Part shown: positions 12,002 to 14,970 of the stretch, piece by piece | Layout: the number at the start of each line of letters is the position of its first letter | Position numbering within the stretch: position 1 is the stretch's first letter | Assembly: GCA_944383925.1 (NCBI GenBank) | Contig: CALWRM010000076.1 | Location: 1 to 37,177 of the forward strand | From: an uncultured Clostridia bacterium | GTDB taxonomy: Bacteria; Bacillota; Clostridia; Christensenellales; UBA1750 | DNA length: 37,177 nucleotides | Reading direction: 5' to 3' | Position numbers and translations under genes: made by a program | Notes under the pieces: model-generated | Told to the model about the DNA's origin: nothing | Database searches by the model: none | Seen by the model: only the letters and a program-made list of their open reading frames with translations

Positions 12002-12032
12002 GCTGGCTTAAAAATATTAAGCCAGCTTTTTT
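12002..12032 (+). terminator. Rho-independent terminator after the HAD gene
   Basis: GCTGGCTTA (12002-12010) pairs with TAAGCCAGC (12018-12026), followed by six T's. Confidence 0.93.
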
Positions 12033-12042
12033 AATTATATTA

Positions 12043-12070
12043 TTGACTTCCTTGAATTATATGATATACT
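12043..12070 (+). promoter_or_regulatory. Sigma-A promoter of the DUF2089/repeat-protein operon
   Basis: TTGACT (12043-12048), a 16-bp spacer and TATACT (12065-12070) lie in an unusually AT-rich patch just after the terminator. It is 55 bp before the DUF2089 start. No other promoter is visible in the operon. Confidence 0.8.
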
Positions 12071-12124
12071 ATCCTCATCAGTTGCAATTGATGTTTCTGT
12101 CCGACCAATGCTGGAGGGAATGCT

Positions 12125-12511
12125 ATGGCATACCAGATCATCCACAACTGCCCCGTTTGCGGCAGCGGCCTTCGGGTTACCCGCCTGCGCTGCCCCAGCT
12201 GCAACACCGTCATCGAGGGAGACTTTCAGACCGAGCGCCTGCTCTCCCTAAACGCCCAGCAGCGCAGCTTCGTCCTCAGCTTTCTGCGCAACCGCGGAAA
12301 CATCCGCGAGATGGAAAAGGAGCTGGGCATCTCCTATCCCACCGTCCGTTCCCGCCTGGACGACATCATCCAGGCCATCGACGGCGCCTCCGCCACCAAG
12401 ACCCCGCCCCTGACCCGCAAACAGATCCTGGAGATGCTCGCAAAGGGAGAGATTACCCAGGAAGACGCCATGGCCATGATCCAGGGCGGCCAAGGTCAAG
12501 GGCAATCCTAG
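12125..12511 (+). CDS. DUF2089 family protein (zinc ribbon plus HTH)
   Basis: The 128-residue protein has an N-terminal four-Cys zinc ribbon (CPVCGSGL and CPSCNT), then a helical HTH region with FVLSFLRNRGNIREMEKELG and ISYPTVRSRLDDII. This is the DUF2089 pattern, thought to be DNA-binding. The last 30 residues contain RKQILEMLAKGEITQEDAMAMI, a short helix-turn-helix hairpin of the SHOCT-like kind. Closely related hairpins open the two downstream proteins. The next gene starts 21 bp after the stop with its own AAGGAG site, so the three genes form an operon. A regulatory role, probably of this operon, is inferred. Confidence 0.9.
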   Translation: MAYQIIHNCPVCGSGLRVTRLRCPSCNTVIEGDFQTERLLSLNAQQRSFVLSFLRNRGNIREMEKELGISYPTVRSRLDDIIQAIDGASATKTPPLTRKQILEMLAKGEITQEDAMAMIQGGQGQGQS

Positions 12512-12532
12512 CACATAAAGGAGAAACAGGCT

Positions 12533-13741
12533 ATGTATCAGAGCATCCAGCAAATTTTGCAAGCTGTCTCCACCGGGGAATTGACGGCCGAACAGGCCGA
12601 TGCACAGATAGAACGGTTGTTACAGGGCCAGGGCCAAGCCGAGGCCCAGGGCGCGGAGGCCCAGCCGGAGGAGGCCCCGCAGGCCGGCGAGGCCGTGGAG
12701 CCCGAGGTTGTGGAGGCCCCCGAGGCCATCGTCCCTTCCATCGAGGACGTCTCTTCCGCCGCCGAACGCCTGGCGGAAGACGCCCTGCACAGGGCGCAGG
12801 ACGCCATTCAGACGGCGAGCACTTACCTTGGCGGGGAGCAGGCGAACCAAGAGGCGCAGTCCGACGCGTCCAAGGCAGAGGGGGAGGCCAAGCAGCAGGA
12901 GCCAAACGCCAGGCGCTCCCGTCCCTCCGGCCGCTTCGGCATCTTCAGCGGCGACATCGTCGGCGATTCCGGCCCGGTGCACGGCGTCATCGGCGGCCAG
13001 CTGCGCGGCCATGTGTTTGGCGACGTTTCCGGCCCCTTGGGCGGCAATCTCCTGGGCGAGGTGGACGGGGACATGCGCGGCCCCATCGGCGGCGACCTGT
13101 CCGGCATCGTGCATGGCAAGCTGCTGGGCGCCGTGGGCGGCAACCTGTCCGGCAAGGTAGAGGGCAAGGTGCAGGGGGCCGTGGGCGGCGATCTGAGCGG
13201 CACGGTGCTCAACGACATGCAGGGCCGCATCGGCGGCGATCTCATCGGAAAGATCAAGGGGAGCTTTCAAGGCTCCGTCGGCGGCGACCTGTCCGGTTCC
13301 GTCGGCGGCGACGTGCTGGGCTCCATCGGCGGCGATCTGTCCGGCTCCGTCGGCGGCAAGCTCTCCGGCGGCATCGGCGGCGACCTGTCCGGTTCCGTTG
13401 GCGGCGACGTGGGCGTAGGTCCCATGGGTCCCCTCGGCAGCAACGGCGCCCACATCCGGGGCGACCTGTCCGGTTCCGTCGGCGGCCATGTGCGCATCCC
13501 CATCGAGGGCGACCTGTCCGGTTCCGTCGGCGGCGACGTGCTGCTGATCAAGGGCGATTGCAACGGCAAGGTTGGCGGCAGCGTGGAGACCATCGAGGGC
13601 GATGTCAACGGCGAAATCGGCGGCAACGTATCCGTCATCTATGGAGACATCGGCGCCAACGCGGTGATCCGCGGCAAGGTCGATCTGCTGTACGGCGACT
13701 GCCGTGGCGACGTCTACGGCGGCATCGTCAAGAAGGTCTGA
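12533..13741 (+). CDS. Glycine-rich repeat protein 1 (predicted beta-solenoid)
   Basis: The 402-residue protein is not a named family that I can recognise. Residues 3-31 form a helical hairpin (IQQILQAVSTGELTAEQADA) like the DUF2089 C-terminus. Residues about 32-135 are an acidic Ala/Glu/Gln linker ending in a basic patch. From about 136 to the end the chain is a Gly-x-hydrophobic-x tetrapeptide repeat, often paired into eight residues as GDLSGSVG. Near the C-terminus it becomes a 15-residue repeat, VGGxVxxIxGDxNGx. No signal peptide, membrane span or LPxTG is seen, so it is cytoplasmic. Regular Gly and beta-branched spacing suggests a beta-solenoid, possibly polymerising like bactofilins; this is inference. 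The end (VIRGKVDLLYGD) matches the paralog's. Confidence 0.85.
   Translation: MYQSIQQILQAVSTGELTAEQADAQIERLLQGQGQAEAQGAEAQPEEAPQAGEAVEPEVVEAPEAIVPSIEDVSSAAERLAEDALHRAQDAIQTASTYLGGEQANQEAQSDASKAEGEAKQQEPNARRSRPSGRFGIFSGDIVGDSGPVHGVIGGQLRGHVFGDVSGPLGGNLLGEVDGDMRGPIGGDLSGIVHGKLLGAVGGNLSGKVEGKVQGAVGGDLSGTVLNDMQGRIGGDLIGKIKGSFQGSVGGDLSGSVGGDVLGSIGGDLSGSVGGKLSGGIGGDLSGSVGGDVGVGPMGPLGSNGAHIRGDLSGSVGGHVRIPIEGDLSGSVGGDVLLIKGDCNGKVGGSVETIEGDVNGEIGGNVSVIYGDIGANAVIRGKVDLLYGDCRGDVYGGIVKKV
13283..13528 (+). repeat. Near-identical 24-nt coding repeats inside repeat protein 1
   Basis: The 20-mer GGCGACCTGTCCGGTTCCGT occurs four times in about 250 bp, starting near 13283, 13379, 13459 and 13508. Many one- or two-base variants lie between. 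Each copy encodes GDLSGSV. The copies are much more alike at the DNA level than the protein repeat requires, pointing to recent slippage or gene conversion. Confidence 0.85.
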
Positions 13742-13763
13742 ACCTGAGAAGGAGCGTTCCATC

Positions 13764-14639
13764 ATGCATGAAGCGATACATCAAATTCTGGAAGCCGTCG
13801 CCCGGGGCGAGCTCAGCCCCGAGGAGGGCGACCGGCAGATCGGCGCCTTGCTGAAGGAGCCCGCGGACGGCGCTCCGGAGGGGGCCTCCTCCGGGGGCGC
13901 CCAGGACGGCCGGCATACGGGCGACGCCTCCGGTCCCATCCATGGCGTGGCAAGCGGCGACATCAACGGCTCGGTGGCCGGCTCCGTCTCCGGCAAGCTC
14001 AAGGGAAGCGTCCACGGCGACGTGCGCGGTTCCGTCAACGGCCTCATCTCCGGCGACGTGGACGGCGCGGTGCAGGGCGACGTCTCGGGCCGCGTTGGCG
14101 GCCATGTGACGGGCGGCGTCGGCAGAAACGTCTCCGGCATGGTGGGCGGTAACATCGGCCTGGCGCAGGAGCGCGAACATCTCCAGGTAGGCGGCTCCAT
14201 CCATGGCAAGGTGGGCGGCCACGTGCACGCGACGGTGCTCGGCGGCGTCTCCGGCATGGTGGGCGGGGATGTCTACCGGGTGGAGGGCAAGATCTCCGGC
14301 AAGGTGGGCGGCAGCGTGGAAGAGGTGCTCGGCGGCGTCTCCGGCCATGTCGGCGGCTACGTCCGCCACCTCGCCGGCGGACTGTCCGGCACGGTCGGCG
14401 GCGACGTGGACCGGTTGGATGGCGACCTTTCCGGCTGTGTGGCCGGCAATGTCCGCACCCTGCGCGGCTCCGTCTCCGGCAGGATCGGCTCCAAATTTTC
14501 TCCCAACAGCGGCAACGTGCATGAGCTGTTTGGCGATGTGAAGAAAAAGTCCGTGATCTACGGCCGCGTGGACATCCTTCACGGCCAAAACCACGGACAA
14601 ATCCTGGGCGGCGTCGGCGAGTTCCGTCCCGGCGACTAG
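13764..14639 (+). CDS. Glycine-rich repeat protein 2, paralog of the upstream gene
   Basis: The 291-residue protein has the same architecture as its upstream neighbour: an N-terminal helical hairpin (IHQILEAVARGELSPEEGDR), a short Gly/Ala linker to about residue 55, then Gly-x-hydrophobic-x repeats. From about residue 135, 15-residue units of the form VGGxVxxLxGxLSGx are clear, with at least five in a row. The closing segment VIYGRVDILHGQNHGQILGG aligns with the end of protein 1. ATG 13764 is chosen because GAAGGAGCG precedes it and the upstream alternative start lies inside the previous gene. No export signal is present. It is the last gene of the operon. Function unknown. Confidence 0.85.
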   Translation: MHEAIHQILEAVARGELSPEEGDRQIGALLKEPADGAPEGASSGGAQDGRHTGDASGPIHGVASGDINGSVAGSVSGKLKGSVHGDVRGSVNGLISGDVDGAVQGDVSGRVGGHVTGGVGRNVSGMVGGNIGLAQEREHLQVGGSIHGKVGGHVHATVLGGVSGMVGGDVYRVEGKISGKVGGSVEEVLGGVSGHVGGYVRHLAGGLSGTVGGDVDRLDGDLSGCVAGNVRTLRGSVSGRIGSKFSPNSGNVHELFGDVKKKSVIYGRVDILHGQNHGQILGGVGEFRPGD

Positions 14640-14970
14640 CTTCTCTTCCCCATATAAGGCGGGCGGGCCGGTTTCCGGCCCGCCCGCTTGTTCTCCTCGG
14701 CCAAAACCACGGGCAAGTCCCGGGCGGCACGGTAAGTTCTGCCCCGGCGACTCGCTTCCCTTCCCCGTGTAGGGCGGGCGGGCCGCCGGGCGTTTTCCTC
14801 GGCCAAAACCACGGGCAAATCCCGGGTAGTGCCGGCGAGTTCCGCTCCGGCGACTCGCTTCCCTTCCCCGTGTAGGGCGGGCGGACCGCCGCGCGTTTTC
14901 CTCGGCCAAAGCCACGGGCAAGTCCCGGGCGGCGCCGGCGAGTCTCTTTCCGGCGACCAAATGCCTTCCC
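14583..14970 (+). repeat. Decayed tandem copies of the 3' end of repeat protein 2
   Basis: A unit beginning GGCCAAAACCACGG starts at 14583 (inside the gene), 14699, 14801 and 14904, at spacings of 116, 102 and 103 bp. Each unit repeats the last 50-60 coding bases of the gene plus the first 45-50 bases beyond its stop. In the copies the TAG stop is changed to TCG. Identity to the genic copy is roughly 85 percent by eye. The region 14640-15112 otherwise holds no gene that I can support, only GC-rich inverted repeats. It is not a CRISPR array because unit and spacer are both repeated. Confidence 0.8.
14659..14693 (+). terminator. Terminator of the DUF2089/repeat-protein operon
   Basis: GCGGGCGGGCCGG (14659-14671) pairs perfectly with CCGGCCCGCCCGC (14675-14687) around TTT. 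TTGTTCTCC follows. It lies 20 bp after the operon's last stop. Confidence 0.8.

What the first reader, a model, noticed from the sequence alone, without database searches (positions are those of the whole stretch)
12125..14639. Three-gene operon of DUF2089 regulator plus two tetrapeptide-repeat proteins
A DUF2089 zinc-ribbon/HTH gene is followed at 21 and 22 bp by two paralogous, signal-less proteins. Their bodies are Gly-x-hydrophobic-x repeats, often eight-residue GDLSGSVG, turning to 15-residue VGGxVxxLxGxLSGx units. Both end in a shared closing segment (VIxGxVDhLxG). The spacing suggests a beta-solenoid that could polymerise in the cytoplasm, like bactofilins, but the repeat is not the bactofilin one and I recognise no named family. 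One promoter and one terminator bracket all three. This is the best candidate here for an undescribed system.
Basis: partly seen in the sequence, partly recalled or inferred. Interest (0 to 1): 0.88.

Follow-up and report, generated by a model that had tools for sequence, protein, structure and literature searches.

The report
DUF2089 operon with tetrapeptide beta-solenoid partners
A gut bacterium's small DNA-binding protein is made together with two glycine-rich proteins predicted to fold into rigid coiled rods, and all three share the same short docking module; this is an unusual version of a known but experimentally untested type of membrane-stress gene set.

Summary
Three genes lie at 12125-14639 with 21- and 22-bp gaps; the two repeat proteins are paralogues built from h-x-G-x tetrads. 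Operons of a DUF2089 regulator with SHOCT-like partners are widespread in Firmicutes, usually with a short partner or a Toastrack (DUF4097) beta-helix, and were proposed in 2024 to be lia/PSP-like sub-membrane signalling systems. Here the Toastrack body is replaced by a tetrapeptide repeat that no Pfam or NCBIfam model covers. AlphaFold2 predicts right-handed solenoids with coils of 16, then 15, residues; sequence periodicity (mostly 16, 15 or 18, not 8 or 5) supports this without the model. The DUF2089-repeat order is kept in 12 of 12 testable genomes from four families; elsewhere the repeat is fused to an XRE HTH. Most likely it is a cytoplasmic, membrane-proximal scaffold that holds or releases its regulator. 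A bactofilin-like polymer is the main rival. Neither function is shown. New variant of a known kind.

The parts
12002..12026 (+). intrinsic terminator of the upstream HAD-type gene
   Evidence: 10-bp stem, T6 tail
12043..12070 (+). promoter-like site, TTGACT-16-TATACT with TG before the -10
   Evidence: sigma-70-like sites at a similar place in L101 and L022
12076..12093 (.). imperfect 18-bp palindrome CATCAGTTGCAATTGATG over the presumed start of transcription; candidate operator
   Evidence: one mismatched pair; no conserved palindrome found in relatives, so unproven
12125..12511 (+). gene 1: DUF2089 regulator (zinc ribbon, HTH, SHOCT-like C-terminus), 128 aa
   Evidence: only DUF2089 found in the genome
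12416..12484 (+). SHOCT-like module, C-terminus of gene 1
   Evidence: PF22746, 23.3 bits; best in genome
12533..13741 (+). gene 2: SHOCT-like + linker with predicted helices + tetrapeptide-repeat solenoid, 402 aa
12545..12619 (+). SHOCT-like module, N-terminus of gene 2
   Evidence: PF22746, 20.1 bits; third best in genome
12980..13411 (+). gene 2 body, nine 16-residue coils (4 x h-x-G-x)
13625..13738 (+). gene 2 closing segment
13764..14639 (+). gene 3: SHOCT-like + short linker + solenoid, 291 aa
13782..13850 (+). SHOCT-like module, N-terminus of gene 3
   Evidence: PF22746, 22.3 bits; second best in genome
14211..14480 (+). gene 3 15-residue coils
14511..14636 (+). gene 3 closing segment
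14657..14689 (+). terminator-like GC hairpin (15 bp, short U-tract)
   Evidence: not called by the scan

Best explanation
This is a divergent DUF2089 / SHOCT-like / beta-helix operon. Shown by sequence: the regulator and both repeat proteins carry the same SHOCT-like module, and this gene order recurs in related genomes. Predicted: both repeat proteins are soluble right-handed beta-solenoids with 16- and then 15-residue coils. Inferred: SHOCT-like modules pair between regulator and solenoids, so a cytoplasmic, membrane-proximal solenoid scaffold holds the DUF2089 DNA-binding protein. An envelope or other internal signal changes this hold, and the regulator then adjusts transcription, first of its own operon. 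My sub-confidences: operon class 0.85; cytoplasmic solenoid 0.8; SHOCT-mediated hold and release of the regulator 0.4.
For: (1) PF22746 is the DUF2089 C-terminal module and matches the N-termini of both partners; the three genes are the best three hits in the genome, and the orthologue L180 passes the curated cut-off, 27.1 against 27. (2) In the 80 best DUF2089 loci, 76 of 77 informative ones have a SHOCT-like N-terminus in the next gene (crude pattern); by inspection the long partners include DUF4097-like and tetrapeptide proteins, and L033 was confirmed as DUF4097 by Pfam. (3) DUF2089 is beside the tetrapeptide gene in 12 of 12 testable genomes, from four families. (4) Models: repeat pLDDT mostly above 90; inward positions 36 of 36 hydrophobic in the P0002 coils, no charged residue. 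(5) The same repeat is fused to an XRE HTH in three genomes, so its link to DNA-binding proteins has arisen in a second way. (6) Published proposal for the Toastrack form of this context: SHOCT-like as inner-membrane anchor, beta-helix as assembly platform (PMC11237479). (7) Several gene-2-type relatives have an amphipathic stretch between module and solenoid (P0004, P0006, P0010, P0012, P0014, P0015).
Against: SHOCT-SHOCT binding, membrane location and any regulated target are not shown. No membrane protein is encoded in this operon. In the window's own proteins the amphipathic stretch is weak (P0002) or missing (P0003). PF22746 scores for the window proteins lie below the curated cut-off. 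The operator is a single unconserved palindrome. AlphaFold2 is known to over-predict beta-solenoids for perfect repeats (PMC11795689).
Confidence: 0.45

Rival explanations
1. Bactofilin-like cytoskeletal scaffold: the two paralogous solenoids co-polymerise end to end beneath the membrane, and the DUF2089 protein simply sets their level.
For: Right-handed solenoid model; BacA (2n3d) aligns to P0003 187-288, Z 7.3, rmsd 3.0, 95 of 103 residues, 22% identity. Orthologue P0004 matches PF04519 at E=0.0012, and a DUF2089 partner in another family (L205) at 0.022. B. subtilis has a similar layout, yhbD followed by two paralogous bactofilins BacE/BacF at the membrane (PMC4627819).
Against: No PF04519 match reaches the cut-off and none is seen in the window's own proteins. 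Z 7.3 is in the range the tool calls common. A SHOCT-like module shared with the regulator is not needed for this model.
Confidence: 0.3
2. T4 gp5-type homotrimeric triple-stranded beta-helix: each octad is one strand of an intertwined rod.
For: phrog_430 (baseplate hub/tail lysozyme) E=4e-9 for P0002 and 7e-7 for P0003; PF22178 E=2.3e-4 for P0002 and 1.8e-6 for P0008; match lost when residues are shuffled within tetrad columns, 0 of 6; weak tblastn matches to cyanophage structural proteins.
Against: Below Pfam cut-off (28.5 against 30.9 at best). In most arrays non-glycine periodicity peaks at 16, 15 or 18, not 8 (P0002: 0.38 at 16, 0.23 at 8; P0012: 0.49 and 0.22), as a two-octad coil predicts. 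Monomer models are confident.
Confidence: 0.12
3. DNA mimic like the pentapeptide-repeat proteins Qnr/MfpA: a four-sided coil with acidic surface that occupies the regulator or another DNA-binding protein.
For: Four tetrads per coil resemble a four-sided coil; P0002 repeat body net charge -10; linked to HTH proteins in trans and in cis.
Against: P0003 body net charge 0; period is 4/16, not 5/20; no pentapeptide-repeat match.
Confidence: 0.05
4. Low-complexity filler: disordered repeats folded only by AlphaFold2's solenoid bias.
For: AF2 predicts confident false solenoids for perfect random repeats (PMC11795689).
Against: Coils are imperfect (mean pairwise identity 0.55 and 0.51), all inward positions tested are hydrophobic with no stacked charge, periodicity is kept in relatives with variable coil length, gene order conserved.
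Confidence: 0.06

Closest known systems
DUF2089-Toastrack operon (PSP/lia-like context, PMC11237479)
   Same: ZnR-HTH-SHOCT-like regulator followed by a SHOCT-like protein with a beta-helical body
   Different: body is a tetrapeptide-repeat solenoid without detectable Toastrack homology; two tandem copies; no membrane partner in the operon
LiaX / YvlB (helical N-terminus + DUF4097)
   Same: short helical N-terminus plus beta-strand body; LiaX controls a stress regulator (PMC10269926)
   Different: LiaX acts through LiaF and LiaS; here a cytoplasmic DUF2089 regulator, different body
Bactofilins, especially BacE/BacF with yhbD
   Same: two paralogous right-handed beta-helix proteins after a small upstream gene
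   Different: 15/16-residue tetrapeptide coils, SHOCT-like N-terminus, no PF04519 match at cut-off
MpAFP ice-binding RTX-like domain (3p4g)
   Same: best fold match, Z 17.4 and 17.9, rmsd 3.8 and 3.2
   Different: extracellular and calcium-bound; no homology claimed
T4 gp5 C-terminal beta-helix
   Same: octad V-x-G-x resemblance, phrog_430 E=4e-9
   Different: gp5 is an 8-residue-period trimer; here the period is mostly 16/15/18

Membership tests
DUF2089-type regulator | zinc ribbon PF22747 and HTH PF09862 above cut-off | tested here: met
   55.3 against 27.6 and 78.2 against 33.4 bits
DUF2089 / SHOCT-like operon | next gene begins with a SHOCT-like module | tested here: met
   PF22746 in genes 2 and 3, sub-cut-off but best in genome; an orthologue passes the cut-off
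Toastrack (DUF4097/DUF2154/DUF2807) | Toastrack profile match in the body | tested here: not met
   no Pfam match; profile comparison with DUF4097 partners aligns only the N-terminal 26-34 residues
lia/PSP operon | membrane partner such as PspC or LiaI-LiaF-TM in the operon | tested here: not met
   three genes only; upstream HAD gene ends in its own terminator, downstream gene lies on the other strand
Bactofilin | PF04519 above cut-off | tested here: not met
   no match in window proteins; best relative 19.4 against 27.9 bits
Bactofilin | right-handed beta-helix core | tested here: inconclusive
   predicted model only, Z 7.3 to BacA
Bactofilin | forms non-polar polymers | not testable with these tools
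   needs purified protein and EM
T4 gp5 C-terminal trimer domain | PF22178 above cut-off | tested here: not met
   21.7 (P0002) and 28.5 (P0008) against 30.9 bits
T4 gp5 C-terminal trimer domain | 8-residue structural period | tested here: not met
   peak at 16, 15 or 18 in most arrays tested; P0006 and the N-terminal part of P0003 show 8 as strongly
Pentapeptide-repeat proteins | 5-residue repeat | tested here: not met
   4/16 period
Anti-phage defence | match to a PADLOC model | tested here: not met
   none at E 0.01

The most novel reading that the evidence does not exclude
A previously unnamed class of cytoplasmic tetrapeptide-repeat solenoids (16-residue coils) that assemble into polymers and directly hold transcription factors, through a shared SHOCT-like module in trans or by fusion to an XRE HTH in cis: a cytoskeleton-like element acting as a gene-regulatory sensor.
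Probability: 0.2. Interest if true: 0.78.

Novelty: new variant of a known kind. Interest (0 to 1): 0.52.

Why it matters
The DUF2089 context has been proposed on genomic grounds as a lia/PSP-like stress system; I found no experimental test of it in the library searched. This operon is a compact form with no membrane partner in the way, and its shared SHOCT-like module makes one testable prediction: the regulator docks on a solenoid. The repeat itself has no Pfam or NCBIfam model and would give the solenoid catalogue a 16-residue-coil type built from h-x-G-x tetrads.

Tried and rejected
No Rfam match in the window. No PADLOC match. NCBIfam gives nothing for genes 2 and 3. Strong-looking sequence matches to 23fj and 6su9 are low-complexity G-Q/G-N repeats and were discarded. 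Many 'class' hits (L183-L190, L192) are SVEGSVVGS-type frames, several lying antisense to large repetitive ORFs, and were not counted. No conserved operator was found upstream of DUF2089 genes. The phylum-wide sample gave no hit at E 1e-10 beyond the window genome. Left-handed helices align only at rmsd about 10 and right-handed ones at 3-4, which I take as predicted right-handedness; I had no coordinates to measure it.

Full report
WHAT IS THERE. Three genes on the + strand, 12125-12511, 12533-13741 and 13764-14639, separated by 21 and 22 bp, each with a ribosome-binding-like site. Upstream, the HAD-type gene ends in its own terminator (12002-12026), and a promoter-like TTGACT-16-TATACT with an extended -10 lies at 12043-12070; relatives L101 and L022 have similar sites in the same place. 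Downstream there is a strong GC hairpin at 14657-14689 (-35.6 kcal/mol, z -5.7) with only a short U-tract; the terminator scan did not call it. The glycine ladder is far above chance.

Pfam divides gene 1 into the DUF2089 zinc ribbon, HTH and a SHOCT-like C-terminus, PF22746. That same module is the N-terminus of both repeat proteins. Scores are below the curated cut-off, but in the whole genome the three best PF22746 hits are exactly these three genes, E 1.6e-4, 3.5e-4 and 1.8e-3, the next being 0.02. The orthologous repeat protein L180 passes the cut-off at 27.1 bits, and seven of ten family members match at E below 1. Gene 1 is the only DUF2089 found in this genome.

COMPARATIVE EVIDENCE. 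The 80 best DUF2089 loci in GTDB genomes are mostly Clostridium and Bacillaceae. By a crude pattern, 76 of 77 informative ones have a SHOCT-like N-terminus in the next gene. Most partners are about 129 aa. Some are about 400 aa, and one tested is a Toastrack DUF4097 protein (PF13349 E=1.4e-17). Genome searches gave 14 genomes with SHOCT-like tetrapeptide proteins, in four families. In 12 the DUF2089 gene is beside the repeat genes (in G009 with one small SHOCT-like ORF between); the other two (G007, G010) are cut by contig ends. Number and order vary: two repeat genes in the own family, one in G001, G054, G093, G150, G309, G318, G377 and G589, and one on each side of DUF2089 in G075. The feature is sporadic: 14 of 297 genomes of the order match at E 1e-6, a count that includes a few non-SHOCT hits. 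A phylum sample showed no hit outside the window genome at E 1e-10.

FOLD. AlphaFold2 with a six-sequence alignment gives the P0002 repeat region at pLDDT mostly above 90 (mean 79.7 overall, pTM 0.59) and P0003 at mean 89.8, pTM 0.74. DSSP shows 16-residue coils of four h-x-G-x tetrads, then 15-residue coils near the C-terminus. The best fold match is the right-handed calcium-dependent ice-binding domain 3p4g (Z 17.4 and 17.9). Right-handed helices superpose at rmsd 3-4, left-handed acyltransferases at about 10, so I read the model as right-handed. Because AF2 is known to invent solenoids for perfect repeats (PMC11795689), I checked two things. Inward positions are all hydrophobic, 36 of 36 in P0002, with no charge stacked inside, and the coils are only 51-55% identical to each other. 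And, without any model, non-glycine autocorrelation peaks at 16 in P0002, P0008 and P0012, with 16 and 32 leading in P0004, P0010 and P0014, at 15/30 in the C-terminal half of P0003, and at 18 and 36 in the gene-3 orthologues P0005, P0007, P0009 and P0011. Coil-length variants of this kind fit a monomeric coil better than an 8-residue trimer repeat. DNA-level duplication of 48-bp units could also contribute to the 16-residue signal in P0002, and P0006 and the N-terminal part of P0003 show 8 as strongly as 16.

FUNCTION. Published analysis of the Toastrack version of this context proposes that SHOCT-like domains anchor proteins at the inner membrane face and that the beta-helix is an assembly platform feeding a transcriptional output (PMC11237479). 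The best-studied related architecture, LiaX, uses a helical N-terminus and beta-strand body to restrain a stress regulator (PMC10269926). Applied here: the DUF2089 protein docks by its SHOCT-like tail on SHOCT-like heads of the solenoids and is held or released by a signal. The independent fusion of the same repeat to XRE HTH domains in three genomes supports a direct link between solenoid and DNA-binding protein. Six gene-2-type relatives have an amphipathic stretch before the solenoid, consistent with membrane contact; P0002's is weak and P0003 has none. Docking, membrane location, signal and targets are all inferred.

RIVALS. A bactofilin-like polymer is the strongest: BacE/BacF in B. subtilis lie in a putative operon behind yhbD and act at the membrane (PMC4627819), and weak bactofilin matches recur. 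The gp5-type trimer has the best raw sequence scores (phrog_430 E 4e-9), and a column-shuffle control shows the match depends on the octad order, but period and coil-length variation argue against it. DNA mimicry and disorder are less likely.

NOVELTY. The operon class is known from genomics; the solenoid body is not covered by Pfam or NCBIfam and does not align with Toastrack beyond the N-terminal module. I call it a new variant of a known kind.

Noticed in passing
14690-14957: A 103-bp tandem array directly downstream is made of decayed copies of the 3' end of gene 3 plus the first part of its terminator hairpin.
   Followed up: partly
L146:3896-4411, L147:4032-4565, L191:3163-3705: XRE-type HTH proteins carry the same tetrapeptide repeat fused at their C-terminus.
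   Followed up: partly
L101:4229-5212: The same-genus relative G001 has a single repeat gene whose body looks like gene 2 and whose end looks like gene 3, as if one operon had lost or fused a copy.
   Followed up: no
L022:6406-6783: An extra small SHOCT-like helical ORF sits between DUF2089 and the repeat genes in Christensenella sp. UBA7102.
   Followed up: no
L205:3-1361: A DUF2089 partner in another family has a SHOCT-like N-terminus and a weak bactofilin match (E 0.022) at its C-terminus.
   Followed up: no
L179:2688-3263: The DUF2089 protein here has a long Gly/Asp/Ser-rich insert between HTH and SHOCT-like tail, and its partner has a highly charged Arg/Glu-rich linker.
   Followed up: no
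12076-12093: Imperfect 18-bp palindrome between -10 and start codon, possible operator, not conserved in relatives.
   Followed up: partly
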